From Clostridia bacterium (GTDB lineage: Bacteria > Bacillota > Clostridia > Oscillospirales > Acutalibacteraceae): a DNA stretch of 64,000 nucleotides. The DNA lies in assembly GCA_017521925.1 (NCBI GenBank), contig JAFXBG010000001.1, forward strand, positions 51,504-115,503, in the 5' to 3' direction. This document shows, piece after piece, positions 3,081 to 24,764 of the stretch (position 1 is the stretch's first letter; the number at the start of each line of letters is the position of its first letter). The notes under the pieces are model-generated. The model was not told where the DNA came from, ran no database searches, and was given only the letters and a program-made list of their open reading frames with translations. The position numbers and the translations under genes were made by a program.

Positions 3081-3200
3081 TGTGTTGAGGCTTACTGTCC
3101 TTCGAATTTTAAGCACGAGCTGTAATTTACCGAACATAGCTGAATTGCAGGAGTGCGATACAAACTCAAAGGACAAGCAGTAAGCAACGAGGCATAATAT
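3081..3200 (+). repeat. Dispersed folded repeat element, copy A (diverged)
   Basis: This is a 120-bp palindromic unit between a terminator and the next gene. The outer arms GCTTACTG and CAGTAAGC pair, and inside them TCCTT pairs with AAGGA. It ends in CAACGAGGCATAATATAG. Its layout (GAGGC, outer arm, inner arm, a GTGCGA block, then the reverse arms and GAGGC) matches copies B (13878-14010) and C (24631-24764), although the primary sequence has diverged strongly. No reading frame was found in it. A short sequence directly after it (3204-3231) resembles the two ends of the same element joined together. Confidence 0.55.
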
Positions 3201-3256
3201 AGTTTGTGCGCCGTGGCGTGACACTTGATAACATATAGATATACGGAGGAATGAAA

Positions 3257-3706
3257 ATGACAAAAGCAGAAAAAGCAAAAAGCTTATTTTTACAGGGATA
3301 TAACTGTGCACAGGCGACATTTGGTGCCTTTGCAGAGGATTACGGTCTTGATTTTAATGTTGCCATGACCCTTTCAGCAGGACTTGGCGGAGGTATTGGC
3401 AGATTAAGAGAAACCTGCGGTGCCGTTACAGGCGCAACTTTAGCTGTATCCCTTGCAATGGGCAGTTTTGACCTTAACAACCCTGATGCTAAAACAAAGG
3501 TTTACGAGGAAATCCGCAAGGTGGTTGAGATTTTCGAAAGCGAAACAGGCACAATTGTCTGCGCAGATATGCTTGGTGTAAATCGCCGCGGCGACGATGC
3601 CAACGCCGAACCCCGTACATCCGAATACTATAAAAAGCGTCCTTGTGCGGATTTGGTTTATCTTGCCGCTGATGCCGCCGATAAGATTATTTCAAATCTT
3701 CAATAA
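3257..3706 (+). CDS. C_GCAxxG_C_C family redox protein
   Basis: The 149-residue protein belongs to the small Cys-rich family named after its C-GCAxxG-C-C pattern, found in anaerobes. Visible hallmarks are GYNCAQA near residue 17, LGGGIGRLRETCGAVTGA in the middle, and later single Cys residues in IVCADMLG and RPCADLV. The family is thought to be redox-linked or metal-linked, but no reaction is established. There are two ATGs, at 3251 and 3257. The GGAGG at 3245-3249 ends one base before the first, so 3257 (seven-base spacing) is the better start. A clear paralogue lies at 55185-55628 with an almost identical N-terminus (MTKxEKA). Confidence 0.85.
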   Translation: MTKAEKAKSLFLQGYNCAQATFGAFAEDYGLDFNVAMTLSAGLGGGIGRLRETCGAVTGATLAVSLAMGSFDLNNPDAKTKVYEEIRKVVEIFESETGTIVCADMLGVNRRGDDANAEPRTSEYYKKRPCADLVYLAADAADKIISNLQ

Positions 3707-3746
3707 TTTATACTTTCCTGCATAGAGTATTGCAGGAGGTATTATT

Positions 3747-4571
3747 TTGAGAACTTGTTACGGATACACAGAGCTTCTGGAGGACTTGCTTAAGCTATCT
3801 GAAGTATACAAAGATAAGATAAGTATAAAAATAACAGGCACCTCGGTAAAGGGCAGACTTTTGCCCCTTATTAAAATGGGGGGCGGCAATAAAAAGCTGT
3901 TGGTTGCAGGTGCAGTTCACGGCAGAGAGTCCGTAACCTCCGCTTTTATTATGAAAAGCCTGGAAGAGCTTTTGAAAAGCGGTTGTGAATTTGCGGAAAA
4001 AAGCCTTTATGTTCTGCCTATGGTTAATCCTGACGGAGTGGAAATTTTTTTAAAAAGAGACTTGCCACAGGTTACGGTCAAGGATTTCAAAGGTGAGCTT
4101 TTCAAGAACAATGCAAATAATATTAATTTAAACGCAAACTTTCCTTTCTGTTTTTCCAAGGTACCGCCAAAACGTCAGGGCGGAGCAAAATCCGCTTCAG
4201 AGCCTGAAGTAAAATCACTTATAAAGCTTTGCGAAAAAGAAAGGTTTGAGTCGGCTGTTTCGCTTCACGCAAGAGGAAATTGCATTTTCTGGCGTGATTA
4301 TGGAAATAAAGCTGTCAAAGGCGATTTGGAGCTTGCAAAAAGCTTTGAGCAAAACTGCTGCTTTGAGATTATTTCTCCAACCCAAAAAGTAGAGGATTAC
4401 TCAGGCGGGTTTGAAAACTGGTTTCGTTGCAGGTACAGAAAGCCTGCACTTTGTATTGAACTTGTAAAAGACGAGGACATAAGTTTTTCGGATATGATTA
4501 TAAATTTTGAAGAAGCGGTTATCTGGGAGAAAACCAAGAATCTTTTGATTACTTATCTTAATTTTTCATAA
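3747..4571 (+). CDS. M14-family zinc carboxypeptidase-like protein
   Basis: The 274-residue protein has the M14 metallopeptidase layout. HGRE (the HxxE zinc-ligand pair) sits in AGAVHGRESVTSAFI, NPDG follows, the third zinc ligand is probably the His in SLHARGN, and the catalytic Glu is in ALCIELV. Members of this group often cleave peptide bonds in cell-wall stem peptides (gamma-D-Glu-diamino acid bonds). The canonical DLNRNF segment is NLNANF here, so the carboxylate-binding Arg is Ala, which may change specificity. There is no signal peptide, so it is probably cytoplasmic and could act in wall-peptide recycling (inference). It starts with TTG at 3747, seven bases after GGAGGT. Confidence 0.8.
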   Translation: MRTCYGYTELLEDLLKLSEVYKDKISIKITGTSVKGRLLPLIKMGGGNKKLLVAGAVHGRESVTSAFIMKSLEELLKSGCEFAEKSLYVLPMVNPDGVEIFLKRDLPQVTVKDFKGELFKNNANNINLNANFPFCFSKVPPKRQGGAKSASEPEVKSLIKLCEKERFESAVSLHARGNCIFWRDYGNKAVKGDLELAKSFEQNCCFEIISPTQKVEDYSGGFENWFRCRYRKPALCIELVKDEDISFSDMIINFEEAVIWEKTKNLLITYLNFS

Positions 4572-4584
4572 AATTTAGGTTATA

Positions 4585-4613
4585 TTCAAAAAGCTGTCAC
4601 AAAATGGTATTAT
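4585..4613 (+). promoter_or_regulatory. Candidate promoter of the two-component operon
   Basis: TTCAAA (4585-4590) and TATTAT (4608-4613) are separated by 17 bases, 55 bases before the response-regulator start. Confidence 0.4.
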
Positions 4614-4667
4614 TAATAGTATAGAAAATTCGGGGAAAAGATGTTCAAAGTCAGGGGAGGTATAAAT

Positions 4668-5339
4668 ATGAGCAGGATTTTAGTTGTTGATGATGAATTT
4701 GGTATAAGAGAAATTATAAAGAAATACGCAAGCTTTGAAGGTTACGAGGTCAGGGAAGCCGCCAGCGGAATGGAAGCTCTGGATATGGTTATGGCTGAGG
4801 ACTTTGACCTTATTATTATGGATGTTATGATGCCTGAGCTTGACGGTTTTTCAGCTTGCAAAGAAATCAGAAAGCACAAGAAAACTCCTATTATTATGCT
4901 TTCGGCACGTGGCGAGGAGTACGACCGTATACACGGCTTTGAGCTGGGTGTGGACGATTATGTTGTAAAGCCCTTTTCGCCCCGTGAGCTTATGATGCGT
5001 GTAGCTGCAGTTATTAAAAGAAGTCAGAACGGCAGAGATGCCTCTGATGTTTTTACCTACAAAGGACTTGTGGTTGATTTTTCTGCAAGAATTGTAACTG
5101 TAGACAATGAAAGGGTAAGTATGACCCCTAAAGAGTATGACCTTTTCTTTTATATGGTAAAAAACCGAGGTCTTGCATTAACCCGAGAAACTCTTATCAG
5201 CAAGGTCTGGGGTTACGACTTTTTCGGTGATGACCGTACACTGGATACTCACATAAAGCTTTTAAGAAAGTCATTGGGTGAGTACAGCTCCTGTGTTGTT
5301 ACCCTGAGAGGAGTTGGCTACCGCTTTGAAGCAGAATAA
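4668..5339 (+). CDS. OmpR/PhoB-family response regulator
   Basis: This 223-residue DNA-binding response regulator has an N-terminal receiver with acidic residues D8-D9, phospho-acceptor Asp52 (IIMDVMMPELDG), Ser79 and Lys101 (DDYVVKPFS). Its C-terminal winged helix contains LTPKEYDLFFYMV-type and RTLDTHIKLLRKSL segments typical of OmpR/PhoB. ATG 4668 follows GGGGAGGT; an in-frame ATG at 4641 has no good ribosome site. The gene overlaps the start of the sensor kinase, so the two are co-transcribed. The stimulus cannot be read from the sequence. Confidence 0.93.
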   Translation: MSRILVVDDEFGIREIIKKYASFEGYEVREAASGMEALDMVMAEDFDLIIMDVMMPELDGFSACKEIRKHKKTPIIMLSARGEEYDRIHGFELGVDDYVVKPFSPRELMMRVAAVIKRSQNGRDASDVFTYKGLVVDFSARIVTVDNERVSMTPKEYDLFFYMVKNRGLALTRETLISKVWGYDFFGDDRTLDTHIKLLRKSLGEYSSCVVTLRGVGYRFEAE

Positions 5340-6795
5340 CACACGAAAGCCCTCGAAGAGATTAAGGCAGAAGCTTCTTATCTACTTTCTGGGCTTTTCT
5401 GCCATTATATTAGGTGCGTTGTGGCTGATGCAGACGGTGTTTCTTGACGATGTATACCGCATAATCAAAACCATAGGAATAGAGCAGAGTGCGGATTATA
5501 TCAGCGAGAATATTGACAACTATAACATTACGGCTATTCTGGATGATATTCACCGCCAGAACGATATGCATATAGATGTTTATGATACCACGCAACGGGT
5601 GAACTTTTACCACCTTTATACATCCCGTGAGGAAAGAGATTTAAGCACAGATTATATGCCTCATCAGCTTCGTAATTATTATAACGATGCCAAAGAAAAA
5701 GGCGGAGAAAAGCTTTTTCTTGAGGAGTATACATCAGTAAAAGGAGGCAAAAAAACTCCGCATATGCCACAGTCAGAGCATCTCCGCGTTAAGAATATGA
5801 CCTGCGTAAGAATCCTGCAAGATGGTGATATGGAGCTTATGGTAGTACTGAGGTGGGCTATTACACCCTCGGCAAGCACGGTTGCAACCTTACGTTTTAT
5901 ACTTATAATTATAACCATTTTGCTGGCACTGCTTTCTGTTACCATGTCGCTGATTATTTCGTGGAAGTTTGCAAAGCCTCTTAAAGATACCAACGAAACA
6001 GCCAAAAGACTGGCACGAGAGGATTATTCGGTTTCTTTTGAAAGCTACGGCTACAGAGAGGTTGAGGAGCTTAACTCTACACTTAATTTTGCGGCAACGG
6101 AGCTTGGAGTTGCATCTAAATTACGCAAAGAGCTTATTGCAAATGTTTCTCACGATTTGCGTACACCGCTGACTATGATTAAAGGCTATGCTGAGGTTAT
6201 GCGAGATATACCGGGAGAAATGAACGAGGAAAACCTTACCGCCATTGTAGATGAAAGCACCAGACTTTCTAATCTGGTAAGTGATTTGCTGGATATTTCA
6301 AAGCTTCAGAGCGGAGCAATGCCTATTGATAAAAAGATTTTTTCTCTTACAACCTGTATCTCTGATATTCTGAGCAGGTTTACAAGCCTTTCTTTGCAAC
6401 AAGGGTATAGTCTTAGCTTTGAAAGCTCAGAAGAAGTGTTTGTTTTTGCCGATAAGGCAAGAATTGAGCAGGTGCTTTACAATCTTATTTCAAACGCCGT
6501 AAACTATTCAGGAGAGCGAAAAGAGGTAATAGTCTGTGAAAAGCTTGCAGATGGCATTGTCAGGGTCGAAGTAACCGACAGCGGCAAAGGCATTGAACCC
6601 GAAAAACTCAAAAATATATGGGACAGATACTACAGAGCCGACAAAAATCATCAGCGTGCGGTGGTTGGCACGGGACTGGGGCTTTCTATTGTTAAAGAAA
6701 TCCTGGATTTGCATGGTGCTCACTTTGGCGTTTTCAGCAAAGTGGGCGAGGGAAGTACCTTCTGGTTTGAGCTGCCTGTATATAATGAAAATTAA
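5326..6795 (+). CDS. Sensor histidine kinase
   Basis: This is the membrane-bound kinase partner of the preceding regulator. It has a basic N-terminus, a first membrane helix (about residues 16-35), an extracellular region to about residue 185, a second helix (residues 190-210), HAMP, a HisKA domain with His276 in SHDLRTPLT, and a HATPase domain with N box NLISNAVNY, G1 GKGIEPEK and G2 GTGLGLSIVKEI. The start is uncertain: there is no ATG, and TTG occurs at 5314 and 5326. The AGGAG at 5309-5313 directly abuts the first, so I prefer 5326. The start lies inside the 3' end of the regulator gene. A terminator follows. Confidence 0.9.
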   Translation: MKQNNTRKPSKRLRQKLLIYFLGFSAIILGALWLMQTVFLDDVYRIIKTIGIEQSADYISENIDNYNITAILDDIHRQNDMHIDVYDTTQRVNFYHLYTSREERDLSTDYMPHQLRNYYNDAKEKGGEKLFLEEYTSVKGGKKTPHMPQSEHLRVKNMTCVRILQDGDMELMVVLRWAITPSASTVATLRFILIIITILLALLSVTMSLIISWKFAKPLKDTNETAKRLAREDYSVSFESYGYREVEELNSTLNFAATELGVASKLRKELIANVSHDLRTPLTMIKGYAEVMRDIPGEMNEENLTAIVDESTRLSNLVSDLLDISKLQSGAMPIDKKIFSLTTCISDILSRFTSLSLQQGYSLSFESSEEVFVFADKARIEQVLYNLISNAVNYSGERKEVIVCEKLADGIVRVEVTDSGKGIEPEKLKNIWDRYYRADKNHQRAVVGTGLGLSIVKEILDLHGAHFGVFSKVGEGSTFWFELPVYNEN

Positions 6796-6805
6796 ATATT
6801 TTCTC

Positions 6806-6842
6806 AAAACGTCTCTGAAAAAACAGGGGCGTTTTGTTATAA
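6806..6842 (+). terminator. Terminator after the histidine kinase
   Basis: AAACGTCTCTG pairs with CAGGGGCGTTT (with G-U pairs) across an AAAAAA loop and is followed by TGTTATAAT. Confidence 0.65.
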
Positions 6843-6951
6843 TAAAAGTATACTTTATTGTTAGATATTGAGTTTTTTGAAAAGATATTTGACATATCTG
6901 CGTTTTATGTGCAATACTTTGCCACTATAAAATGTGAAAGAAGAAATTAAA

Positions 6952-7148
6952 ATGACAAACAAAACTTATTCTAAGATTTTGCGTTTGTACTTGCATTAAT
7001 GATTGTAATGTCTTCAATGGTAGCTGCATTTGCTCTTACCAACGATGAAGGCTACGCATCCGTTATTGCTACTGCTGACTAAGTAACTGAGGACGAGGCT
7101 ACATTGGATATAACTACAATCCAGAAGAAAATTGCTGAATTAATCTGA
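6952..7148 (+). pseudogene. Decayed secreted dockerin-like gene
   Basis: Starting at ATG 6952 the frame reads MTNKTYSKILR and then stops. One frame over it continues as a signal-peptide-like FVLALMIVMSSMVAAFALT and runs to a TAA near 7080. In the same frame after that stop comes DEATLDITTIQKKIAELI and a TGA, which matches the second half of a dockerin repeat (DATxIQKxxA). The unit has therefore suffered a frameshift and an in-frame stop, and most of the mature protein is missing. It is followed by its own terminator. The intact relatives are the dockerin proteins at 22783, 25101, 46655 and 48898. Confidence 0.6.
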
Positions 7149-7152
7149 TTTA

Positions 7153-7198
7153 TTAACCGCAGATAAGGTTTTATCGCCTTTTCTGCGGTTTTTTCTTT
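7153..7198 (+). terminator. Terminator after the dockerin pseudogene
   Basis: AACCGCAGATAAGG pairs with CCTTTTCTGCGGTT and is followed by TTTTCTTTATAAT. It insulates the tRNA operon downstream. Confidence 0.8.
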
Positions 7199-7224
7199 AT
7201 AATAAAAAAATTTTAATAAAACCC

Positions 7225-7253
7225 TTGACAAAACAAAACATATATACTATAAT
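7225..7253 (+). promoter_or_regulatory. Consensus sigma-A promoter of the tRNA operon
   Basis: TTGACA (7225-7230) and TATAAT (7248-7253) are both perfect matches with a 17-base spacer, 33 bases before the first tRNA. Confidence 0.9.
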
Positions 7254-7286
7254 CACTATTGCTACTTTTGCGGTAGTTATATAGAT

Positions 7287-7363
7287 GGCGGAATAGCTCA
7301 GTTGGCTAGAGCATTCGGTTCATACCCGAAGTGTCGTAGGTTCAAGTCCTATTTCCGCTACCA
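7287..7363 (+). tRNA. tRNA-Met (CAT), probably elongator
   Basis: The 77-base cloverleaf has acceptor arm GGCGGAA/TTCCGCT, anticodon loop TTCATAC with CAT at 7321-7323, T-arm GGTTCAAGTCC and an encoded CCA. The anticodon stem lacks the three G-C pairs of the initiator, which favours elongator Met. It is the first gene of a three-tRNA operon. Confidence 0.93.
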
Positions 7364-7366
7364 TAT

Positions 7367-7441
7367 GGCCCGGTGGTCAAGAGGTTAAGACACCGCCCTT
7401 TCACGGCGGTAACACGAGTTCGATTCTCGTCCGGGTCACCA
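7367..7441 (+). tRNA. tRNA-Glu (TTC)
   Basis: The 75-base tRNA has acceptor arm GGCCCGG/CCGGGTC, anticodon stem CCGCC/GGCGG with loop CTTTCAC giving TTC at 7400-7402, and an encoded CCA. It lies three bases after tRNA-Met. Confidence 0.95.
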
Positions 7442-7454
7442 TTTTTCTTTTTCT

Positions 7455-7540
7455 GCCGGTGTGGTGGAATGGCAGACACAAGGGACTTAAAATCCCTCGG
7501 TAGCAATACCGTACCGGTTCAAGTCCGGTCACCGGCACCA
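7455..7540 (+). tRNA. tRNA-Leu (TAA)
   Basis: The 86-base tRNA has acceptor arm GCCGGTG/CACCGGC, anticodon loop CTTAAAA with TAA at 7488-7490, the long variable arm expected for a class II tRNA, and an encoded CCA. Confidence 0.95.
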
Positions 7541-7590
7541 TTTCCCTGGTCTGCGTACTCTCGGCAATTTACCGCAAAAGTTTTTGGATA

Positions 7591-7620
7591 AGTCTTCCTT
7601 CAGGGAAGGCTGTTTTTTGT
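7591..7620 (+). terminator. Terminator of the tRNA operon
   Basis: AGTCTTCC pairs with GGAAGGCT across a short loop and is followed by GTTTTTTGTTTT. Confidence 0.8.
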
Positions 7621-7653
7621 TTTATAGACAAAATTCTTACAAAAAGTGACAAT

Positions 7654-7695
7654 TATCCTGCCTTTGTTGACATAGGCAGGATTTTTTTATATAAT
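7654..7695 (+). promoter_or_regulatory. Promoter of the GH13 gene embedded in a terminator-like hairpin
   Basis: TTGACA (7667-7672) and TATAAT (7690-7695) are perfect matches with a 17-base spacer. The -35 box sits in the loop of the hairpin ATCCTGCC (7655-7662) / GGCAGGAT (7675-7682), whose 3' arm is followed by seven T residues. The same bases could therefore end read-through from the tRNA operon and start the next transcript. Confidence 0.75.
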
Positions 7696-7739
7696 AATAA
7701 CCTATATGTTTTTACACAATTACACTATGGAGTGGTATA

Positions 7740-9620: not shown

Positions 9621-9840
9621 TAAGACCTGTAAATTCAGTATTATTATACTTATATTATAGAAATTATAACAAAATGCATACACAATATGTTGTATTCAGA
9701 AAAATTTTATTTACCTGATTGACCAAAGGTTAAACAGGTAATTTATGAAAATTGTATAATATTGTGGCAAAGCATATTGTTTTTTGTGTTACATTATGAT
9801 ATTATAAGAAATAAAACTTTTTGTAAGGAACGGGAAAATC

Positions 9841-10767: not shown

Positions 10768-10782
10768 GGAGGTAAGTTTACA

Positions 10783-11865: not shown

Positions 11866-11880
11866 GGAGGTTATCTTAAA

Positions 11881-12909
11881 ATGAGTTTATTATCAGTAAA
11901 AGACCTTAAAACCTCCTTCTTTACTCCCTCAGGTGAGGTAAAAGCCGTTAACGGCGTTTCCTATGAGGTAGAAAAGGGTAAGGTTTTAGGTATTGTTGGT
12001 GAATCGGGCTCAGGTAAGTCCGTTTCAGCTTACTCAGTTCTTCAGATTCTTGCAAATCCCGGCAAAATTGTCGGCGGTAGTATTGAGCTTGAAGGCGAAG
12101 AGCTTGTAGGTATCAAAGAAAAAGGTATGGCAAAAATCAGAGGTAACAAGATTTCTATAATCTTCCAGGACCCTATGACAAGCCTTAACCCTGTTTTCAC
12201 CATAGGCGACCAGCTTATGGAAGCCATTATGCTTCACACCAACCGTAACCGTAAAGAAGCTAAAGAGCGTGCCATTGAAATGCTCAAGCTTGTTGGTGTT
12301 AACGAACCCAAGAAGCGTATCAAGCAGTATCCCCACGAGTTTTCAGGCGGTATGCGTCAGCGTGTTATGATTGCTATGGCTCTTGCCTGCGAACCCGACA
12401 TTCTGATTGCAGACGAGCCTACAACGGCTCTTGACGTTACAATTCAGGCTCAGATTCTTGACCTTATGAAGGACCTTCAGAAAAAGCTTGGTATGGCAAT
12501 TATCCTTATCACTCATGACCTTGGCGTTGTTGCTGAAATGTGTGACGAGGTTATCGTTATGTATGCAGGCCAGATTTGCGAAAGAGGTACTGCTGAGGAG
12601 ATTTTCTACAATCCCAAGCACGAGTACACACTGGGCCTTATGCGTTCAATTCCCACAGTAAGTGATGAAAAAACAAAGCTCCAGCCCATTGGCGGTAATG
12701 CAGTTGACCTTTTGAATCTTCCTCCCGGCTGTCCCTTCGCACCCAGATGCGATGCAGCTATGAAGGTTTGCCTCGAGGTTAACCCCAAGCTTGTTTGCGA
12801 GGGCGGTACACACTACGCCAGATGCTGGAATCATGTTAAGAAAAATATTGAAGAGGGCAAATTTACCGCTGAGGAAATTGAGGCTCTTTACAATGAGGAG
12901 GCAAAATAA
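11881..12909 (+). CDS. oppD: Oligopeptide ABC transporter ATPase OppD
   Basis: This ATP-binding subunit (342 residues) has Walker [10 protein letters not shown]-loop [10 protein letters not shown], signature FSGGMRQRV, Walker [13 protein letters not shown] and switch His in ITHDLG. The C-terminal oligopeptide-transporter extension contains the conserved Cys cluster [15 protein letters not shown] and a later CWN, which in this family can bind an Fe-S cluster. Its stop overlaps the oppF start by one base (TAATG), indicating translational coupling. Confidence 0.94.
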
Positions 12910-13877
12910 TGAGTGAAGAAAAGTATTTGCTTGAAGTCAAAGACTTAAAGCAGCACTTTAATATTCCCAACGGCCTCTTCGGAAGCAAAAAGCTCAAGGC
13001 TGTTGACGGCGTTTCATTTGCCATTAAAAAGGGCGAAACTTTAGGTCTTGTTGGTGAGTCAGGCTGCGGTAAAACAACTGTTGGCCGAAGCATCCTTCAC
13101 CTTTATCAGCCCACAAGCGGTGAGGTTATTTACGACGGCAAGGTTATTAAAACCAAAAAAGACGTCAATGAAATGAGAAAAAAGGTTCAGATGGTTTTCC
13201 AGGACCCTTACTCATCTCTTGACCCCAGAATGACAGTTGCCGATATTATCGGCGAGCCTCTTGATATCCACAAGCTTTGCAAAACAAAGGCAGAGCGTGA
13301 GGCAAGAATTCAGGAGCTTTTAAAAATTGTTGGTTTAAACCCTGAGCATGGAACCCGTTATGCTCACGAGTTCTCAGGCGGTCAGCGCCAGAGAATCGGT
13401 ATCGCACGTGCTCTTGCGGTTAATCCTGATTGTATTATCTGTGACGAACCGGTTTCGGCACTTGACGTTTCGATTCAGGCACAGATTATCAATATGTTTG
13501 AAGAGCTTCAGGAGACTTTAGGTCTTACTTACCTCTTCATCGCTCACGACCTTTTGGTTGTTAAGCATATTTCAGACAGAATTGCAGTTATGTACTTAGG
13601 TCACATTGTTGAGATGGGTCCTGCTAACGAGATTTACAATCATCCCACACACCCCTACTCAATTTCTCTGCTTTCTGCTGTTCCTATTCCCGACCCTGAT
13701 TACGCTAAGAATCACAAGCGTATCGTATTGGAGGGTGACGTTCCTTCTCCCCTTAATATGCCTTCAGGCTGTCCCTTCCGCACACGTTGCCCCAGAGCAA
13801 CTGCAAAATGTGCCGAGGAAACACCTGAGCTTAAGGAGATTGCACCCGAGCATTTTGTTGCTTGCTTTAATCTTTAA
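12909..13877 (+). CDS. oppF: Oligopeptide ABC transporter ATPase OppF
   Basis: This is the partner ATPase (322 residues), with Walker [23 protein letters not shown], signature [10 protein letters not shown], Walker [13 protein letters not shown] and switch IAHDL, followed by the Cys cluster [15 protein letters not shown]. The [11 protein letters not shown] block separates OppF from OppD. The stop codon TAA (13875-13877) is directly followed by the first base of the dispersed folded repeat, copy B. Confidence 0.94.
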
Positions 13878-14010
13878 TGTGCGCCGAGCATTGTTGCATT
13901 TCAATTTTCAAGCTCGAACACAAAATCGAAAAAGCCGATTTATCGGCTGTGCGATTTAGTTTAGGGCGTGGAAAACTCGAAATGTCAGCAACAATGAACG
14001 AGGCGTGACA
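13878..14010 (+). repeat. Dispersed folded repeat element, copy B
   Basis: This 133-bp element starts immediately after the oppF stop codon. The outer arm CATTGTTGC pairs with GCAACAATG, the inner ATTTC pairs with GAAAT, and a central hairpin AGCCGA-TTTA-TCGGCT is nested in an AAATCG/CGATTT stem. It is by eye about 80 percent identical to the reverse complement of copy C. No coding frame was found in it. Confidence 0.75.
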
Positions 14011-14029: not shown

Positions 14030-14092
14030 ATCAGTGAAGAGTGAATAATGAATAGTGTTGGTGGCGGCTTCGCCGCAATTAATATTTGTTTA
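14030..14092 (+). repeat. Short interspersed repeat with GC hairpin (class 2)
   Basis: An AT-rich lead (GTGAAGAGTGAATAATG) is followed by GGTGGCGGCTTCGCCGC and CAATTAAT. The hairpin GCGGC-TTC-GCCGC is near perfect. The layout recurs at 16031-16094 with a different but still self-complementary hairpin. It fills the spacer before oppA, and no gene was found in it. Confidence 0.4.
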
Positions 14093-16132: not shown

Positions 16133-16143
16133 GATATGATATT

Positions 16144-17934: not shown

Positions 17935-17954
17935 ATTAAAACCTCCTTAAAGGA

Positions 17955-19250
17955 TTATAAGTTCATACTTGTTTTACCGTCAAGATAAATTGCAGTAAAC
18001 TGAGAAACAAAATCTTCGCCCAAAGTAATTTCTACCTGTTCGCCTGTGGTCATATTTTTAAGGTTTGCCTTGTTTTCCTCTATTTCATTGTCGCCGATAA
18101 CAAGTGAGTACTGAGCACCGATTTTGTTTGCATACTTCATCTGTGCCTTTAAACCTCTGCCCACAATGTCGTACTGAGCGTGCAGGGAAGCATCTCTTAA
18201 GTCCTTAACTAAAGAGAAAGCCTTTGCCTCAGCATTTTCGCCCAAAGCCGCAACATAAAGTGCACAGGGTTCGGGTTTAGGGATTTCAATACCCTTGCTG
18301 TCAAGAAGCAAGAGGAGTCGCTCCATACCCAAGGCAAATCCCAAAGAGGGTAAGGGCTGACCGCCCAGCTCCTCAATAAGACCGTCGTATCGACCGCCGC
18401 CGCAAACCGTGGACTGAGAGCCGATACTGCCGCTTACAAATTCAAATACAGTCTTAGTATAGTAATCAAGACCGCGGACTATTCTGGGGTTTACTGTGTA
18501 TTTCATACCTGCACCGTCAAGGCAAGCCTTAACACCCTTAAAGTGCTCCTCGCACTCGTCACAGAGGTAGTCAAGGATTACAGGTGCATCCTTTGCAATT
18601 CCTGAGCAAACCTTGCTTTTGCAATCAAGAATACGCATAGGGTTACGCTCAAGTCTGCCTTTGCAGGTGTCGCAAAGCTCTTCTTCGTGGGATGCAAAGT
18701 ATTCCTTAAGTGCTGCGTGGTATTTTGCACGGCAAGTGGGACAGCCGATAGAGTTAATCTCAAGGCTTAAATCGTCAATGCCAAGCCTGTCAAAAATTGA
18801 AGCAGCGGCACAGATAAGCTCGGCATCTGCCACAGGCTTTGATGTGCCGTAAACCTCTAAGCCAAACTGGTGGAATTCCCTGAGTCTGCCTGCCTGAGGC
18901 TTTTCATAGCGATAGCAGGATACAAAGTAGCTTGCCTTAACGGGTAAGCCGTCATTGTATACGCCGTGCTCAAGTAAAGCACGGGCGGCACCTGCTGTAC
19001 CCTCGGGACGCAGAGTTACGGACTCACCGCCCTTGGTGTCGAAAGTGTACATTTCTTTCTGTACAACGTCTGTAGTTTCGCCAACGCTACGCTTAAAAAG
19101 CTGTGTATTTTCAAAAACAGGAGTGCGGATTTCAGCAAAGCCGTAAACTCTTGCCTGCTCACGCATAATCTCCTCTAAAAACTGCCAACGATAGCTCTCA
19201 GCGGGCAGAACGTCCTCGGTGCCCCTGAGCTTTTTGGTGATAAGAGCCAC
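17955..19250 (-). CDS. hisS: Histidyl-tRNA synthetase
   Basis: This class II synthetase has the HisRS signatures TLRPEGTAGAARALLEHG, a motif-2 CYRYEKPQAGRLREFHQFGLEVYG segment and RGLDYYTKTVFEF, plus a C-terminal anticodon-binding domain (ALYVAALGENA onward). I use the GTG at 19250 because GGGGAG lies six bases upstream; an in-frame TTG at 19268 would put the ribosome site inside the gene. A Cys-rich insertion (CPTCRAKY, CDTCKGR, CDECEEH) near residues 175-240 is present in some clostridial HisRS. No T-box leader is visible in the 100 bp upstream, which hold only the terminator of the upstream gene. Confidence 0.95.
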   Translation of the reverse strand: MALITKKLRGTEDVLPAESYRWQFLEEIMREQARVYGFAEIRTPVFENTQLFKRSVGETTDVVQKEMYTFDTKGGESVTLRPEGTAGAARALLEHGVYNDGLPVKASYFVSCYRYEKPQAGRLREFHQFGLEVYGTSKPVADAELICAAASIFDRLGIDDLSLEINSIGCPTCRAKYHAALKEYFASHEEELCDTCKGRLERNPMRILDCKSKVCSGIAKDAPVILDYLCDECEEHFKGVKACLDGAGMKYTVNPRIVRGLDYYTKTVFEFVSGSIGSQSTVCGGGRYDGLIEELGGQPLPSLGFALGMERLLLLLDSKGIEIPKPEPCALYVAALGENAEAKAFSLVKDLRDASLHAQYDIVGRGLKAQMKYANKIGAQYSLVIGDNEIEENKANLKNMTTGEQVEITLGEDFVSQFTAIYLDGKTSMNL

Positions 19251-19324
19251 TTTAAGCTCCCCTTTCAAGTAGATAAATCTTTAATAATTTATTTTATCAT
19301 ATTTTCATCTGCATTTCAACACCT

Positions 19325-19362
19325 CAAAAAGCAAAAATCCCCTGCATTTATGCAGGGGATGA
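19325..19362 (-). terminator. Terminator after the anti-sigma gene
   Basis: On the minus strand ATCCCCTGCAT pairs with ATGCAGGGGAT and is followed by TTTTTGCTTTTTG. Confidence 0.88.
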
Positions 19363-19371
19363 GGAACTAAG

Positions 19372-20574
19372 TTATACCAAAGGTGTTGTGTAGATGTAGC
19401 TTACGTTTTCGTTTTTGCTAATTCTGAGAATTTCGTCTTTTGTAGCAGTAACTACAAAGCCATAGGTGTAAATTCCGTGTTCTTCTATGCTTTCCATAAG
19501 GGTAACAAATTGACCATCCGAGGAGTGATATCCAACCATTTCAAAGAAATCTTTATTCTCCAGCATATATCTGAGCATACTTGTCATGTGAGTTTCCATA
19601 ACTTCAGCTGAAGGCTTATTGAGAGAGTAATCGCCCTCGACGGAGTCTATTACGTCAAAAAAGTTCAGATAGGGATATTTTTCATTGTCATAAGCATGTT
19701 CACTTGCGTTGCCATGGAAGTTAAAGCCTGTAATTCCGCCTGTTAAGTAGTAATCGTTGCCTAAATGTTCGCAAACTGCACACCATTCGGGAGTGATATT
19801 GCTTTTTTTGCTCCAGTTTACCATTTCGTCGTAAGTCATAACCTTGTCAAAGGTAACGTAGGCAACGTAGTAGTCGTGTTCGTCAAGCTCGGTAAGCTTT
19901 CTTAATGCATCCTCAGGAGTACCTGCGGCGGCGGTTCCGCCCTGTCCTGTAAGACCTTCAACGCCCTCATACCAGAATGCGTTGTGTGCAGGCATATTCA
20001 GAATTGTGTCGTCAAAAAGGTTCAGCCAGTTTTTGTCTATGGTTCCATGAACATTGTTGAACTGCCCTGTAAAGCTGAAGTTTTTTAATATCTGGATATC
20101 GTATTTGCCGAAACCGTTACGGTTTGCATAGGTACTGAAGCGATAGTACCCCGGAGTAAACAGCTCTGAGTAAACCATAGTATCAATATCCAGCTGAAGT
20201 GAAGCAGCTCCGCTTTCGGTTCTTCCTACAATTTGGGCAGGGTCATAATAGAAAGAGTCAACAATATTTGGCAGGGCGGTGTTTGCAACAATTACAAGTG
20301 CCAGCACTATTATGCCTACCCCTATGCCAAGTTTAAGAAAAGCCCTGCGGATAGATTTTTTAATCATTTTCTGAAAACGTTTTTCGTCAAAACCGCTGTT
20401 GTCATCAGAGATTTCCGCCTCAAGGCAGGAGTTTTCAAGCTCAGGGATTTCGTCATTTTCAAATAAAAATTCGCTTATGGCTTCCTGCTTTTCAATGTCA
20501 GCCTTTATTTCTTTTTTCTGTTCTTGTGAAAGCTCGCCTTTTTTGTATAAATTTAAAAGCTCTTTATATGTCAT
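19372..20574 (-). CDS. Membrane-anchored anti-sigma / sigma-regulatory protein
   Basis: This 400-residue protein is encoded directly after, and overlapping by 11 bases, an ECF-type sigma factor. The first 85 residues are charged and cytoplasmic, with a conserved N-terminal MTYKELLNLYKKGELS. One membrane helix follows (about residues 83-107, LGIGVGIIVLALVIVANTALP), then a large extracytoplasmic domain (residues 110-400) resembling the sigma-factor regulator N and C domains. By its position and topology it probably holds the sigma factor inactive until an envelope signal arrives (inference). The signal is unknown. Confidence 0.75.
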   Translation of the reverse strand: MTYKELLNLYKKGELSQEQKKEIKADIEKQEAISEFLFENDEIPELENSCLEAEISDDNSGFDEKRFQKMIKKSIRRAFLKLGIGVGIIVLALVIVANTALPNIVDSFYYDPAQIVGRTESGAASLQLDIDTMVYSELFTPGYYRFSTYANRNGFGKYDIQILKNFSFTGQFNNVHGTIDKNWLNLFDDTILNMPAHNAFWYEGVEGLTGQGGTAAAGTPEDALRKLTELDEHDYYVAYVTFDKVMTYDEMVNWSKKSNITPEWCAVCEHLGNDYYLTGGITGFNFHGNASEHAYDNEKYPYLNFFDVIDSVEGDYSLNKPSAEVMETHMTSMLRYMLENKDFFEMVGYHSSDGQFVTLMESIEEHGIYTYGFVVTATKDEILRISKNENVSYIYTTPLV

Positions 20575-21061
20575 AGCCGTGTACCTCCATAAATTTTCTA
20601 AGTTCTTTTTTACCTCTGAAGCTCAACACCCTTACGTTTTCAGGGGTAATGTGCAAAATTGCGGCAATCTCTTTTTGAGAAAGCCCGCTGAAATACTGCA
20701 GAATAAGAACCTCTCGTTTTATTCCTCCAAGGCTTTGCAAAGCCTCAAAACAAAGCCGCCTGCGTTCATTTTCTATGATTTTTTCTATCATAGGCGGTGA
20801 GTCAGAAGGGGAATCTTTAAGGTTTTCAAAGCTTTCTTTCTTCTTTTCTTTTTTAATGAGGTTATAGTAAAGATTCCTCGCCACCATATATAGCCACGCA
20901 CGCATATTGCCGTGACTGTCGGGTAATGAAAGAATCGCTTTAAGGAAAGTTTCCTGCACCAAGTCCTCGGTAACTTCCCGATTGCGACAAAGGGAGTAAA
21001 TGTAAAGATATATTTCTTTGTAGTATTTCTGATAAAGCTCATTAAGCAGTTTTTTGTCCAT
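20564..21061 (-). CDS. ECF-type RNA polymerase sigma factor
   Basis: This 165-residue sigma-70-family protein has region 2 LYIYSLCRNREVTEDLVQETFLKAI and AWLYMVARNLYYN, and region 4 LGGIKREVLILQYFSGLSQKEIAAILHITPENVRVLSFRGKKEL, which forms the HTH. It is a typical ECF size without sigma-1 or sigma-3. ATG 21061 follows GGGGGAG; upstream in-frame starts have no ribosome site. The start of the downstream membrane protein overlaps its last codons, so the two are translationally coupled. Confidence 0.9.
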   Translation of the reverse strand: MDKKLLNELYQKYYKEIYLYIYSLCRNREVTEDLVQETFLKAILSLPDSHGNMRAWLYMVARNLYYNLIKKEKKKESFENLKDSPSDSPPMIEKIIENERRRLCFEALQSLGGIKREVLILQYFSGLSQKEIAAILHITPENVRVLSFRGKKELRKFMEVHGYDI

Positions 21062-21104
21062 TTTACTCCCCCTTTCCTTAAGTCTCGAAGTACTTCTACA
21101 CATA

Positions 21105-21131
21105 TAACAACTCGGTGCAAAAAATGTTACA
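21105..21131 (-). promoter_or_regulatory. Possible autoregulated ECF promoter upstream of the sigma gene
   Basis: On the minus strand TGTAAC (complement of 21126-21131) lies about 65 bases before the sigma start and resembles ECF-type -35 boxes with an AAC core. The -10 region is not clear. Confidence 0.3.
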
Positions 21132-21147
21132 CTTTATTTTACCACAA

Positions 21148-21180
21148 AATAAAAAAGAGCGGAAAATTCCGCCCTTTTAA
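21148..21180 (-). terminator. Terminator after the Fic gene
   Basis: On the minus strand GGGCGGAA pairs with TTCCGCTC (one G-U pair) and is followed by TTTTTTATTTTG. Confidence 0.8.
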
Positions 21181-21186
21181 GATTTG

Positions 21187-22398
21187 TTAAGTTTTTGCGA
21201 TTATTTCGTCTACCACATTTAAGTTTAGTGTAAAGAATTTTTCGTTACCGTTTTTCTTTTCTGCTAATAAACCGTTGCTTTCTATAGTCGCGAGCCTTTT
21301 TTTGATAGTATTACGACTTTCGCCTGTGTTTTCTATTAATTCTTTAGTTGAGATACCATGTTCTGCAAATAGGGTTGCCTGTACAAGATAGTCGTACACA
21401 TTACTTAGCTTTTGATTAGTACCCTCAGGCAAGTAAGGGATAGCTTTAAGGTAATGATTCATAGCACTTACCCTGTTAGAGAGGGCTTGGGCTAATTGGT
21501 ACATCGACTTGTAAACTATATTTGTAAACATATATAAAAACGGAGTTAAATCACCTTTGTTGCGGGGATCGTTGCAGGTTTTAAAAGCTTCGTAATATTC
21601 TTTTATATTTTCCTGAATAGTATAAGATATCCGATAACCAATCAGTGGTTCTAATTGTTTTGATAACAGATAGCTGCTTATAAATCGCGAGGTACGACCG
21701 TTTCCGTCATAAAAAGGATGAATGTACCCGAAAAGGTAGTGGAAAATAGAAACTCTGAATAAATCTACAATTTGGTCGTCGTTTAATATATTGATTGCGC
21801 TATTCATTGCTTCTATAATTTTTTCTTCGGGTAATAGTCCTGTATGGATTTCTTTACCGGTTGGCGAAAGGACGCTTACACTGTTTTTTCTGAAAATCTT
21901 ACCGTCAGGGAAGTTGCTCGGGTCATCTTCAATTACTTCAGGAAGAGCTAATTCATCGTAAATATCGCGAATGTCTTTTGCCGATTCTATATCTATAGTC
22001 TCGTTATACATAAGCATAATATATTTATTTACTAAGCCCTTGAACCTTTTTTTAGAATCGCTTTTTTGTAAATCGGTCAGCACGCTGTCGATTTCTTTTC
22101 GGGTGCTGTGAACACCCTCTATATTATTTGATAAAACAATTTCGTCAATAAGACATCGTTTGGTAAATTGAGTTATTGATAAATTAGGGAGATAAGCTAC
22201 AAAGGATTGTATGTCCTTATCTAATTTTTGTATAGAAATAATTATCTTTAACAGTTCGGGTGTTTCGATAAAAAAAGCTTTGTTTTGATGAATTGTAAAA
22301 TCAAGGTGAACGGCAGAATCCGAGCCGAATCTGCTTTCATAAATTTTGTTGTAGTTTTCTATATCGCTGTGAAATATTTTTAGTAATGAATCGTACAT
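21187..22398 (-). CDS. Fic-domain AMPylase-type protein with N-terminal autoinhibitory motif
   Basis: This 403-residue Fic protein has the core motif HPFYDGNGR at residues 227-235, with the catalytic His227 and the anion-binding GNGR. An inhibitory helix motif SNNIEG (S/TxxxE/N-G type, residues 90-95) lies N-terminal to the Fic core, which places it in the self-inhibited class II. The Glu94 side chain would block productive ATP binding. A C-terminal winged-helix segment (about residues 335-400, STKELIENTGESRNTIKKRLATIE) may bind DNA. Such proteins usually transfer AMP to protein targets; the target is unknown. No separate antitoxin gene is adjacent. It starts with ATG after GAGGTGAG and sits at the edge of the AT-rich accessory block. 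Confidence 0.88.
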   Translation of the reverse strand: MYDSLLKIFHSDIENYNKIYESRFGSDSAVHLDFTIHQNKAFFIETPELLKIIISIQKLDKDIQSFVAYLPNLSITQFTKRCLIDEIVLSNNIEGVHSTRKEIDSVLTDLQKSDSKKRFKGLVNKYIMLMYNETIDIESAKDIRDIYDELALPEVIEDDPSNFPDGKIFRKNSVSVLSPTGKEIHTGLLPEEKIIEAMNSAINILNDDQIVDLFRVSIFHYLFGYIHPFYDGNGRTSRFISSYLLSKQLEPLIGYRISYTIQENIKEYYEAFKTCNDPRNKGDLTPFLYMFTNIVYKSMYQLAQALSNRVSAMNHYLKAIPYLPEGTNQKLSNVYDYLVQATLFAEHGISTKELIENTGESRNTIKKRLATIESNGLLAEKKNGNEKFFTLNLNVVDEIIAKT

Positions 22399-22594
22399 AT
22401 GCTCACCTCTAAATTATTATGCGTTTTTTGAAAACAATATACCCTTATTTTGAATATGATTTTCAAAAACAGTACAATTTGAAAATGCTATAATTAATAC
22501 TAGCATATAAATTGTCAAAAATCAAGGAAATTGACAATGAAATTTAGAAAAATCTAAAAGATATTTAAAAATTTCTGTATTTTAAAAGGACTTT

Positions 22595-22695
22595 AAAAAT
22601 GCAGAAAATTTGCAATGCCCACAATAAAAACAGGGTTTGAAGTTCTTGACTTCAAACCCTGTAATTATATACTTTGAGAAAAACCTTGATTTAAT
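22595..22695. repeat. 101-bp direct repeat, left copy
   Basis: This block is identical to 24515-24615 at 98 of 101 positions (offset exactly 1920). It contains a 14-bp-stem hairpin, ACAGGGTTTGAAGT/ACTTCAAACCCTGT, which on the minus strand is followed by TTTTTATTGTG and could act as a terminator. The two copies bracket the CAP/dockerin gene. The rest of the 384-bp spacer 22399-22782 holds no gene that I can see. Confidence 0.9.
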
Positions 22696-22730
22696 GACAT
22701 ACATAGAAAATAAATCATAATATTATTACA

Positions 22731-22771
22731 AAAAAAGAAACCGAATCGTAAGATTCGGTTTCTTTTTTTTT
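22731..22771 (-). terminator. Terminator after the CAP/dockerin gene (bidirectional)
   Basis: GAAACCGAATC pairs with GATTCGGTTTC across a GTAA loop, with long A/T runs on both sides. Confidence 0.85.
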
Positions 22772-22782
22772 GAATTAAGTTT

Positions 22783-24168
22783 TTATTTTTTTGCTGCTCC
22801 TAACATATGTGCTATACAAATTACAATTTCTCCATATTTATTATACTCATAGGAAATTCCTATTCCCATATTTTCGTAACCTGCATCCAACATATTAGCA
22901 TAATGCTCATCGCTTTTCTTGAAAGCCTCAAATGCATGTTTTGCCAAAGCCTTTAATTGCTCTTTCGACCCTGTAAATTCTCCTTCTACACCAGAATAAC
23001 CAGCAACATCGAAACGGTAAATGTTTTCACCTAAAGCAGTGCTATTATAGCCCTCAATGACCGAAGACCACTTACTGCCATCTGGTCTGATGTGGTCATA
23101 CACAATAGTCAGGTCTTTACTTCTAATTTGTGCACCGTTATCTAATATCTTATTATATGTGAGAACCGTACCACTCCAAGAAACAGCAAGTCTCTCTTCA
23201 TTTACAAGACGGAAAAATTCTTCTTCAATCTTCCAAAGCATTTCAGCAGTAAGAATATCTCCCTCAATAGGGTCAATCGGACCATAGGTTTCTATATTAG
23301 GAATGATAGGCTCAGTAGGCTCAGGTTCGATAGGGGTTTCAGTAGGCATCTCTGTTGTAGACTCTGTGGGTTCAGGCTCAGTAGGCATCTCGGTAGGAAC
23401 TTCTGTTGGTTTCTCTGTCGGGCCTTCTGTTACATCGGGCTCAGTAGGGTCAACAAGGTCTGTTGTGGGTTCTGTAGGTCTTTCAATAGGAACTTCTGTT
23501 GGTTCTTCTGTAGCTGGCTCTGTTGGCTTTTCAGTAGGCATCTCTGTTGTAGGCTCAGTAGGGTCTTCAACAGGTTCTGTGGTAGGCACTGTAGGAATCT
23601 CAGTAGGAACCTTTGTTGGCTCTTCTGTAGCTGGTTCTGTGGGCTTTTCAGTAGACATCTCTGTTGTAGGCTCAGTAGGGTCTTCAACAGGTTCTGTGGT
23701 AGGCACTGTAGGAATCTCAGTAGGAACTTCTGTTGGCTCTTCTGTCGGACCTTCTGTTACATCAGGTTCAGTAATCTCGGGTTCTGTCGGAACTTCTGTC
23801 GTAGGTATTGTTGTGTCTTCTGGTTTTGTGTTTTCAGGTGTTGTCGGAATTTCATCCATAGTTGTTTCTTTCTCGACAGGGAAAACATGAATGAAAGAAG
23901 CAATATACTTCTGAATCATTGTAGCATCAGTAATATCTACTTTGTTATTACCTCCTACATCTGCCACACACTTCTGAATATCTGTCAACTCTGTAAGTCT
24001 AGCAATGTGCTTTTGAATGATGGTAGCATCTTTAATAGTAATATGACCATCTAAATTAACATCACCGAAAGCATATTCAGGAATATTATTATATTCAACA
24101 GCCATTGCAGGCACGATACTAATAGCGAACAAACAAATAGTTAATAAAATAGATAAAAACTTTTTCAT
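22783..24168 (-). CDS. Secreted CAP-domain protein with N-terminal dockerin and Pro/Thr/Glu-rich linker
   Basis: This 461-residue exported protein has a signal peptide (residues 1-23) followed by a two-repeat dockerin-like module (GDVNLDGHITIKDATIIQKHIA and a second repeat VDITDATMIQKYIA, about residues 35-92). A low-complexity PTEP-type linker (about residues 98-300) leads to a C-terminal CAP/SCP domain with FFRLVNEERLA, LGENIYRF and HYANMLDAGYENMGIG. Dockerins are usually C-terminal, so this order is unusual. The linker contains a 39-residue tandem duplication. The protein probably docks on a cell-surface cohesin; the CAP domain function is unknown. ATG follows AGGAGG. It lies between the two copies of the 101-bp repeat. 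Confidence 0.85.
   Translation of the reverse strand: MKKFLSILLTICLFAISIVPAMAVEYNNIPEYAFGDVNLDGHITIKDATIIQKHIARLTELTDIQKCVADVGGNNKVDITDATMIQKYIASFIHVFPVEKETTMDEIPTTPENTKPEDTTIPTTEVPTEPEITEPDVTEGPTEEPTEVPTEIPTVPTTEPVEDPTEPTTEMSTEKPTEPATEEPTKVPTEIPTVPTTEPVEDPTEPTTEMPTEKPTEPATEEPTEVPIERPTEPTTDLVDPTEPDVTEGPTEKPTEVPTEMPTEPEPTESTTEMPTETPIEPEPTEPIIPNIETYGPIDPIEGDILTAEMLWKIEEEFFRLVNEERLAVSWSGTVLTYNKILDNGAQIRSKDLTIVYDHIRPDGSKWSSVIEGYNSTALGENIYRFDVAGYSGVEGEFTGSKEQLKALAKHAFEAFKKSDEHYANMLDAGYENMGIGISYEYNKYGEIVICIAHMLGAAKK
23544..23777 (-). repeat. 117-bp tandem repeat in the linker of the CAP protein
   Basis: Two nearly identical 117-bp units begin at 23544 and 23661 (39 codons each, differing for example in Met-Ser versus Met-Pro and Lys versus Glu). 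The second unit decays towards its end. The period is a multiple of three and keeps the frame. Confidence 0.7.
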
Positions 24169-24269
24169 AATTTTTCCCTCCTTGTTTCAATAATAATTAT
24201 TATAATTATGATTGTCAATATTATTATTTTAAATCATTATAAAATTCATACTTGGGTGGAAAAGAAGTT

Positions 24270-24383
24270 GTGTTTAACCAAGTTATTGAGAAACTAAATT
24301 CCAAAAGGAAAGTAGATGATATTCTAAAATCACTGTCGGCAGAAGAAATAAAAGAACTTTCAGAAAAACTTAATGTCGCTTAA
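24270..24383 (+). pseudogene. Short Lys/Glu-rich ORF, probably the 3' end of a lost gene
   Basis: From GTG 24270 the frame reads VFNQVIEKLNSKRKVDDILK and ends ELSEKLNVA, stopping at 24383. The frame is open upstream only to 24243. There is no ribosome site at the GTG, and a good terminator follows directly, so it looks like the C-terminal coiled remnant of a larger gene. I do not recognise the family. Confidence 0.35.
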
Positions 24384-24387
24384 ACAA

Positions 24388-24428
24388 GATAACCGAAGAG
24401 AGTTTTCTCTTCGGTTATTTTTTATGTC
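24388..24428 (+). terminator. Terminator after the short ORF remnant
   Basis: AACCGAAGAG pairs with CTCTTCGGTT and is followed by ATTTTTTAT. Confidence 0.8.
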
Positions 24429-24514
24429 CTAAGATTAAGGTATGAGAAAGAAATCTCTGCATATCTATTTTCAAAAAACGGCCTATTTTCAAAGGCTTTT
24501 GGAACAAATGTTGA

Positions 24515-24615
24515 AAAAATGCAGAAAATTTGCAATGCCCACAATAAAAACAGGGTTTGAAGTTCTTGACTTCAAACCCTGTAATTATATAATTTGGTAA
24601 AAACCTTGATTTAAT
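24515..24615. repeat. 101-bp direct repeat, right copy
   Basis: This is the second copy of the block at 22595-22695; the three mismatches correspond to 22672, 22677 and 22678. It is followed 15 bp later by the dispersed folded repeat copy C. Confidence 0.9.
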
Positions 24616-24630
24616 CAGGCTTTTATTATA

Positions 24631-24764
24631 TCACGCCTCGCTTGCTTGTTGCTGACCTTCCGAGTTTTCCGCGTTCTCAACCAAATCGCACAGCCGATAA
24701 ATCGGCTTTACCGATTTTGTGTTCGAACTCGAAAATCGAAAGGCAACAAGCCTCGGACGCACAT
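24631..24764 (-). repeat. Dispersed folded repeat element, copy C
   Basis: Read on the minus strand, the element begins directly at a TAA stop codon (TAATGTGCGTCCGAGG) and ends in GCGAGGCGTGATATAATA. The outer arms GCTTGTTGC/GCAACAAGC, the inner CCTT/AAGG and the central AGCCGA-TTTA-TCGGCT hairpin inside AAATCG/CGATTT are all intact. Relative to copy B the outer arm differs at two positions on both sides with pairing preserved. Confidence 0.75.

What the first reader, a model, noticed from the sequence alone, without database searches (positions are those of the whole stretch)
3081..24764. Dispersed folded DNA element in three diverged copies with compensatory changes in its arms
Copies A (3081-3200, +), B (13878-14010, +) and C (24631-24764, -) share one layout: flank with GAGGC, outer arm, inner arm, central hairpin AGCCGA-TTTA-TCGGCT nested in AAATCG/CGATTT (B and C), then the reverse arms and a GAGGC-type tail. 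The outer arms are GCTTACTG/CAGTAAGC in A, CATTGTTGC/GCAACAATG in B and GCTTGTTGC/GCAACAAGC in C. The inner arms are TCCTT/AAGGA, ATTTC/GAAAT and CCTT/AAGG. In each copy both strands of the arm have changed so that pairing is kept. This indicates a structure under selection (structured RNA or REP/MITE-like DNA) rather than decaying junk. I know of no named element with this sequence.
Basis: partly seen in the sequence, partly recalled or inferred. Interest (0 to 1): 0.8.

Follow-up and report, generated by a model that had tools for sequence, protein, structure and literature searches.

The report
Mobile folded DNA hugging gene ends
Three similar 120-135 base hairpins in this gut bacterium belong to a large family of small mobile DNA elements in Ruminococcus and some relatives that keep one folded shape while changing their letters, and that often settle exactly where genes end.

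Summary
Copies A, B and C fold alike (z -4.8 to -5.3) with compensatory changes. They belong to a large family: 56 of 100 genomes of the genus carry it, up to 25 copies each; two other genera hold divergent members. No Rfam family matches them.

In 59 aligned copies 97.7% of outer-stem cells pair; stem P2 uses all four Watson-Crick pairs; tandem G.A steps, a bulge and a G.T pair are conserved.

It is mobile: close relatives differ by filled and empty sites. Recent changes do not favour G.T over A.C mismatches (16 vs 18), while RNase P of the genus does (26 vs 4). So the fold seems needed for spreading, probably as DNA, not for an RNA job at each site.

Placement is striking: 38 of 84 distinct sites begin within -3..+8 nt of an upstream stop codon; others follow terminators, tRNA or 16S rRNA ends; about a third remain unexplained. 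Head-to-tail arrays and 5' partial copies are common.

Best reading: a non-autonomous, shape-conserved mobile element resembling YPAL, ERIC and MRSC-65-2. No mobilising enzyme was found.

The parts
3046..3079 (+). Intrinsic terminator hairpin (GACAGACGC/GCGTCTGTC) and T-rich tract directly before copy A; A starts where the T-tract ends
   Evidence: read by eye
3079..3199 (+). Copy A of the element (short apical part); site empty in close relative G026
3205..3223 (+). Mini version: P1 5' strand next to P1 3' strand (TGTGCGCC GT GGCGTGACA), probably an internal-deletion remnant
   Evidence: read by eye; part of it is a 1-mismatch hit
13875..13877 (+). TAA stop codon of the oligopeptide ABC-transporter ATPase gene (12909-13877), immediately before copy B
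13878..14010 (+). Copy B; G026 holds only a short mini-like remnant at this site (by eye)
24764..24766 (-). TAA stop codon of a 3' remnant of a GGGtGRT-protein gene, immediately before copy C; in G026 the same copy follows the stop of this gene
   Evidence: remnant read by eye and from the 72-bp overlap of two alignments
24629..24763 (-). Copy C; same site filled in G026 (L008)

Best explanation
A, B and C are insertions of one family of small non-autonomous mobile elements (full copies 121-152 nt, too short for a transposase gene). The unit is a rod: P1 (GCGCC/GGCGT), a tandem G.A step, P2 (4 bp of free sequence), a G.A-closed 3x3 or 2x2 loop, P3 (GC/GC), a 4-nt bulge on the 3' side, P4 and a variable apical hairpin (shown by covariation). 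A mobilising enzyme, not identified, most likely recognises this shape, probably in single-stranded or extruded DNA, so only well-folded copies spread; that keeps arms complementary while their letters drift (inferred). Copies lie, with a fixed polarity, mostly behind 3' ends of genes: stop codons, terminator T-tracts, tRNA and 16S rRNA ends (shown for somewhat over half of the sites). Once inserted, copies erode, shrink to minis, or are duplicated locally, giving head-to-tail arrays and 3'-truncated partial copies (arrays shown; hairpin-assisted slippage inferred). In transcripts they would form strong 3'-UTR or intercistronic hairpins and may alter mRNA stability (inferred by analogy with ERIC/YPAL).
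For: Mobility: G000 and G026 differ by presence/absence at site A and at a tRNA-operon terminator; the rplW-rplB spacer is filled in some species and empty in others; the nearest relative outside the same array lies in the same genome for 54 of 126 copies vs 4.2 expected. Shape: 97.7% of 998 cells paired, 12 of 17 pairs with double changes; tandem G.A 118 of 126 at each of its two positions, P3 126 and 124 of 126. Decay at site: G.T 16 vs A.C 18 in 14 close pairs vs 26:4 in 15 pairs of RNase P (Fisher p 0.001). Placement: 35 of 59 usable distinct sites hug the stop vs 3.7 expected; 65 same vs 11 opposite orientation of the 76 distinct sites with an upstream gene call. Arrays: 18 of 18 multi-copy arrays on one strand; 5' partial directly after 38 of 113 arrays, and 1 when the same arrays are tested 200 nt further on.
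Against: No mobilising enzyme: Y1_Tnp is in 7 of 12 copy-rich and 9 of 12 copy-free genomes, RVT_1 in 5 and 7. Target duplication is not clear: site A shows none, though linkers before partial copies repeat the local flank more than chance (61 vs 38.3 nt). Placement is not universal: 34 of 84 distinct sites pass neither the stop nor the terminator test; by eye some are missed stops, terminators or tRNA ends, others are not. At larger divergence G.T mildly exceeds A.C (118 vs 88, p 0.04), consensus stems show 38 G.T to 17 A.C (23 to 16 without one position), and P1 keeps a G.T pair in 117 of 126, which would suit RNA. Gene calls are my own crude ones. The RNase P control used a consensus fold, the element its own folds.
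Confidence: 0.68

Rival explanations
1. A structured RNA working in place: a 3'-UTR/intercistronic element kept at each site because the folded transcript controls mRNA end formation, stability or translation termination.
For: Strong covariation and non-canonical motifs; polarity mostly with the upstream gene and often 0-8 nt behind its stop; presence in ribosomal-protein and rRNA/tRNA operons; mild G.T excess at larger divergence.
Against: No G.T over A.C bias in close pairs, unlike RNase P; 44 of 100 genomes of the genus show none at E<=1e-5 with strict filters; orthologous sites often empty; the only repeatedly occupied gene I saw is rplW (11 of 114 arrays), though smaller clusters of 2 to 4 similar flanks exist.
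Confidence: 0.2
2. A special case of the best explanation: a REP-like element moved by an IS200/IS605-type tyrosine (HUH) transposase or RAYT acting on the single-stranded hairpin.
For: Hairpin with conserved mismatches and one-sided bulge, polarity of insertion, little target duplication; Y1_Tnp matches in 16 of 24 tested genomes.
Against: G039 (100% complete, 16 copies), G055, G045 and G014 have no Y1_Tnp match; 9 of 12 copy-free genomes do; no copy flanking a transposase was noticed in the fetched loci (a regular-expression scan).
Confidence: 0.25
3. A classical MITE derived from a DDE insertion sequence with terminal inverted repeats and a TA target.
For: Size, copy number, intergenic sites, A/T-rich target ends.
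Against: Only a 5-bp imperfect terminal helix; conserved by shape rather than sequence; no longer element with the same ends seen in 812,473 bases of loci, overlaps included; no constant target duplication. DDE transposases were not searched for.
Confidence: 0.15

Closest known systems
YPAL/RU-2 (Yersinia palindromic sequence)
   Same: Small (about 168 bp) structured repeat without TA termini, internal inverted repeats, mobile by filled/empty sites, target in or next to dyad symmetry, expressed with upstream genes (passages of PMC2229807).
   Different: Reported from Yersinia and Erwinia; target duplications of 3-26 bp reported, here unclear. I did not have or compare its sequence.
ERIC/IRU/RU-1
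   Same: 127-bp long stem-loop repeat, co-transcribed with neighbours, affects mRNA stability depending on orientation (passages of PMC2229807).
   Different: Terminal inverted repeats, TA termini and target duplications (table); enterobacteria.
MRSC-65-2 motif (mobile/repeat sequence candidate)
   Same: Single long stem with strong covariation, dozens of copies per genome, possibly relevant as DNA (passages of PMC11109978).
   Different: Diverse phyla, conserved UYCCGG repeat, which I do not see in the conserved blocks here (by eye; no sequence of it was compared).
REP/BIME with RAYT
   Same: Palindromic repeats, often transcribed (abstract, passages).
   Different: REPs are 20-40 bp and end with a GTAG or CGTC tag; here 121-152 nt and no link to Y1 transposases.

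Membership tests
Bacterial MITE | Non-autonomous mobile unit under 200 bp shown by filled and empty sites | tested here: met
Bacterial MITE | Terminal inverted repeats shared with an insertion sequence | tested here: not met
   only a 5-bp terminal helix with a G.T pair; no longer element with the same ends in the fetched loci (whole genomes not scanned for this)
Bacterial MITE | Target-site duplication | tested here: inconclusive
   none clear at site A; flank repeated in linkers more than chance
REP (RAYT-linked) | 20-40 bp palindrome with GTAG tag | tested here: not met
   length 121-152 nt
REP (RAYT-linked) | Y1 transposase present where copies are | tested here: not met
   7 of 12 copy-rich against 9 of 12 copy-free genomes
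YPAL/RU-2 | Sequence similarity to YPAL | not tested
   no YPAL sequence was compared
YPAL/RU-2 | Target in or next to dyad symmetry | tested here: inconclusive
   true for terminator sites and the rplW hairpin; not examined at the other stop-codon sites
Known Rfam RNA family | Match to a covariance model | tested here: not met
   no match over A, B, C at gathering scores; at E<=1 over five other loci a T-box model spans the copy in L033 (50.4 bits, cut-off 93) and a mir-95 model touches the edge of the one in L011 (26.4, cut-off 67.5); neither reaches its cut-off
Structured RNA under in-place selection | G.T tolerated over A.C in recent changes | tested here: not met
   16 vs 18 against 26 vs 4 for RNase P; mild excess at larger distance (118 vs 88)

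The most novel reading that the evidence does not exclude
The element targets the 3' ends of transcripts or genes as such: its copying starts at a free 3' end (stop codon, tRNA or 16S rRNA end, terminator tract), runs through one or more units and breaks off inside the next, leaving [full unit]n plus a 5' partial. That would be a new, polar, transcript-end-directed mode of spreading.
Probability: 0.12. Interest if true: 0.85.

Novelty: new variant of a known kind. Interest (0 to 1): 0.58.

Why it matters
It adds a large family, not in the Rfam copy searched, of shape-conserved mobile DNA in rumen and gut bacteria, sitting also in ribosomal-protein, tRNA and rRNA operons. It gives a case where strong covariation need not mean a functional RNA at each locus, with a simple test (G.T against A.C) to tell the two apart. 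The close hugging of gene 3' ends makes the targeting mechanism of such elements open to direct test.

Tried and rejected
Exact-pattern searches with the family's 5' end found nothing in genome contigs or viral contigs; a degenerate 3'-end pattern found 73 stretches in genome contigs, none in viral contigs. Blastn of single copies gave none in plasmids or phages. Circular-template copying as the source of arrays: weakened because linkers repeat the local host flank. Simple tandem duplication for all arrays: rejected, since of 27 pairs of copies lying within 320 nt 13 are 78-99% alike and 14 only 35-58% (a few of these pairs are near rather than adjacent). Arm-to-arm copying as the source of compensatory changes: not supported, single changes dominate at low divergence. 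Y1 transposase and reverse transcriptase links: not found. Autonomous parent element: none seen. A kink-turn reading of the P1/P2 junction was considered and dropped because the loop is not canonical (my judgement, no call). Literature: in the listings of searches I saw no paper on this repeat in Ruminococcus; the library is open-licence only, 1 to 12 titles were shown per search (none in 84), and De Gregorio 2005 and 2006 were seen only as cited.

Rows dropped: of 62 hits (two opposite-strand self hits, one 32-nt piece) were left out of the 59-copy alignment; of 168 hits short or cut ones were left out, then 24 duplicates; 126 unique copies of 121-152 nt were aligned. Two of the 60 rows (offset -22) have the stop inside the element and are not counted as adjacent. 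The copies studied are those in fetched loci, not every copy of every genome.
Full report
Check of the finding. Copies A (3079-3199 +), B (13878-14010 +) and C (24629-24763 -) are real. Each folds better than every one of 200 shuffles (z -4.95, -4.82, -5.33), and the three-copy consensus has 46 pairs with 13 double changes. The held genome, 1.41 Mb and 72.6% complete, has these three full copies and a 30-nt match to the 5' end elsewhere. Rfam at gathering scores shows nothing over them. At E<=1 over five other loci, a T-box model spans the copy in L033 at 50.4 bits (cut-off 93) and a mir-95 model touches one in L011; neither is found at gathering score for L033 or its look-alikes L084 and L115. 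The T-box match may be a real leader interrupted by the copy, which would be a site that is not a gene 3' end.

The wider family. A model from the three copies hit 29 of 100 genomes of the genus at E<=0.01. A second model from 59 copies hit 56 of 100 at E<=1e-5, with up to 25 matches in one genome; 44 show none. The 3'-end pattern occurs in 73 stretches of named records, titled Ruminococcus, other Clostridia or just 'bacterium', many from ruminant guts by isolate name. In the order, 1 of 197 genomes (the own one) matched; in the family, 6 of 200, three of them in two other genera. Both wide searches scored only 16 candidates per genome, so absences are soft. The 18 copies fetched from the other genera share the plan.

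Anatomy. Over 59 copies and 17 outer pairs, 97.7% of 998 cells pair; 207 cells are double changes against 54.5 after shuffling, covariation 0.556 against 0.155; slid structures pair 29-45%; the count of further pair types is not clearly above shuffles (35 vs 32.8). P2 pairs occur as GC 31, CG 15, UA 8, AU 3 at one position. Over 126 copies the tandem G.A step is kept in 118 at each position, P3 in 126 and 124, the loop after P2 opens with G.A in 100 and with a G-C or C-G fifth pair in 15, and the first P1 pair is G.T in 117.

RNA or DNA. If standing copies were kept by RNA selection, recent changes should favour G.T over A.C. With folds that forbid both, close pairs show 16 G.T and 18 A.C (up to 8 differences), 41 and 27 (up to 15), 86 and 61 (up to 25), 118 and 88 (up to 40). 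RNase P RNA from 30 loci (49 of 60 genomes had a match) gives 26 and 4; the differences are significant (Fisher p 0.001 to 0.010). The mild excess at larger distance (p 0.04), 38 to 17 in consensus stems (23 to 16 without one position) and the G.T in P1 leave some room for RNA. Compensatory pairs grow with divergence, and single steps dominate at first. I read this as selection on the fold over the family's history, at the moment of spreading, with decay afterwards.

Mobility. G000 and G026 are close relatives. Site A is empty in G026; site B there holds only a mini-like remnant; C is filled in both; G026 has a copy behind the terminator of the tRNA-Met/Glu/Leu cluster where G000 has none, and another near B. 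Behind rplW, 11 of 114 arrays carry the element. In the rplW-rplB spacer of 30 loci read, of 67 genomes with a match, two carry the full element by my rule (G012, G055) and one a shrunken one by eye (G094); element-rich genomes such as G056 and G099 have the bare hairpin GCCTGT..ACAGGC behind the stop; several others have different inserts there. In 54 of 126 copies the nearest relative outside the same array is in the same genome, against 4.2 expected (genome labels were merged by me from contig lengths).

Placement. After removing duplicates, 136 copies form 114 arrays: 96 single, 14 double, 4 triple, and all 18 multi-copy arrays have one strand. 58 of 114 arrays start within -3..+8 nt of a same-strand stop. 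Of 84 distinct upstream sites, 38 do; among 59 usable sites 35 do, against 3.7 under uniform placement (maximum 13 in 200,000 simulations); orientation is 65 same to 11 opposite, with 8 lacking an upstream call. Stops are mostly TAA. 12 more sites follow a terminator by an automatic test (13 of 114 arrays against 4 of 112 in a downstream control). The remaining 34 pass neither test; by eye some are missed small genes (rpmJ in L095), terminators (L109, L110, L119) or tRNA ends. Two copies in L035 sit 4 nt behind tRNA-Ile and tRNA-Ala inside an rRNA operon, one in L111 behind tRNA-Thr; those in L064 and the other in L111 follow what look like repeated tRNA 3' ends, ARAGORN's tRNA in L064 being about 200 nt away. 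L208 lies 12 nt behind the 16S rRNA end. Others fit none of these, for example L018, L028, L078. In the window, A follows a terminator tract, B the stop of the oligopeptide ABC ATPase gene, and C the stop of a 3' remnant of a GGGtGRT gene.

Arrays. Pairs of copies within 320 nt are either 78-99% (13) or 35-58% (14) identical, so both local duplication and repeated insertion seem to occur. A 3'-truncated 5' copy stands directly behind 38 of 113 arrays (1 in the control further on); in the 11 multi-copy cases it matches the first copy best in 8. In the other genera 8 of 18 copies have one. Over 49 junctions the linker repeats the host flank more than chance (61 vs 38.3, maximum of 2000 shuffles 56). 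I infer hairpin-assisted slippage.

What moves it. Y1_Tnp is in 7 of 12 copy-rich and 9 of 12 copy-free genomes, RVT_1 in 5 and 7; no longer element with the same ends was seen in the fetched loci; other transposase families were not searched. This is the main gap.

Comparison. Behaviour is closest to YPAL/RU-2 and ERIC (PMC2229807, passages) and to the mobile/repeat candidate MRSC-65-2 (PMC11109978, passages). Stem-loop repeats near gene 3' ends are known (PMC1590033, passages), and stem-loop families have been catalogued (PMC2267715, passages). None was shown to be the same family; membership in MITE or REP fails or is open on defining features.

Noticed in passing
window 24763-24834 and 26477-26548 (-): The last ~72 bp of the GGGtGRT-protein gene occurs twice in this genome, on either side of a dockerin/CHAP-domain gene (25101-26231); in G026 the stretch is single and carries copy C directly.
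   Followed up: partly
window 22623-22695 and 24543-24615: A short terminator-containing segment downstream of C is repeated about 1.9 kb away (both match one place in L133).
   Followed up: no
L083:2403-2591, L066:702-778, L114:3566-3666, L070 around 1239-1472, L092 downstream: What looks like a second repeat (GTCCTCAT..., GGGGACCCCGAT) is nested inside or next to copies of the element.
   Followed up: no
rplW-rplB spacers in L173-L182; window 14037-14090: Other palindromic inserts with GTGAATAGTGAA-like and GGCGGG..CCCGCACCCGAT tracts occupy the same place behind rplW; similar GTGAA-rich tracts lie behind copy B.
   Followed up: no
3' flanks of L016, L059, L101, L105, L117, L128: A recurring sequence like GATATCGCTGTCGCAGACC follows the element at several unrelated sites, perhaps a second module.
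   Followed up: no
L033:1381-1800: Sub-threshold T-box match (50.4 bits, cut-off 93, E 1.1e-8) that spans a copy of the element; perhaps a T-box leader interrupted by the insertion.
   Followed up: partly
L012:1371-1505: A SAM riboswitch (RF00162, above cut-off) ends in a terminator directly followed by a copy of the element.
   Followed up: no
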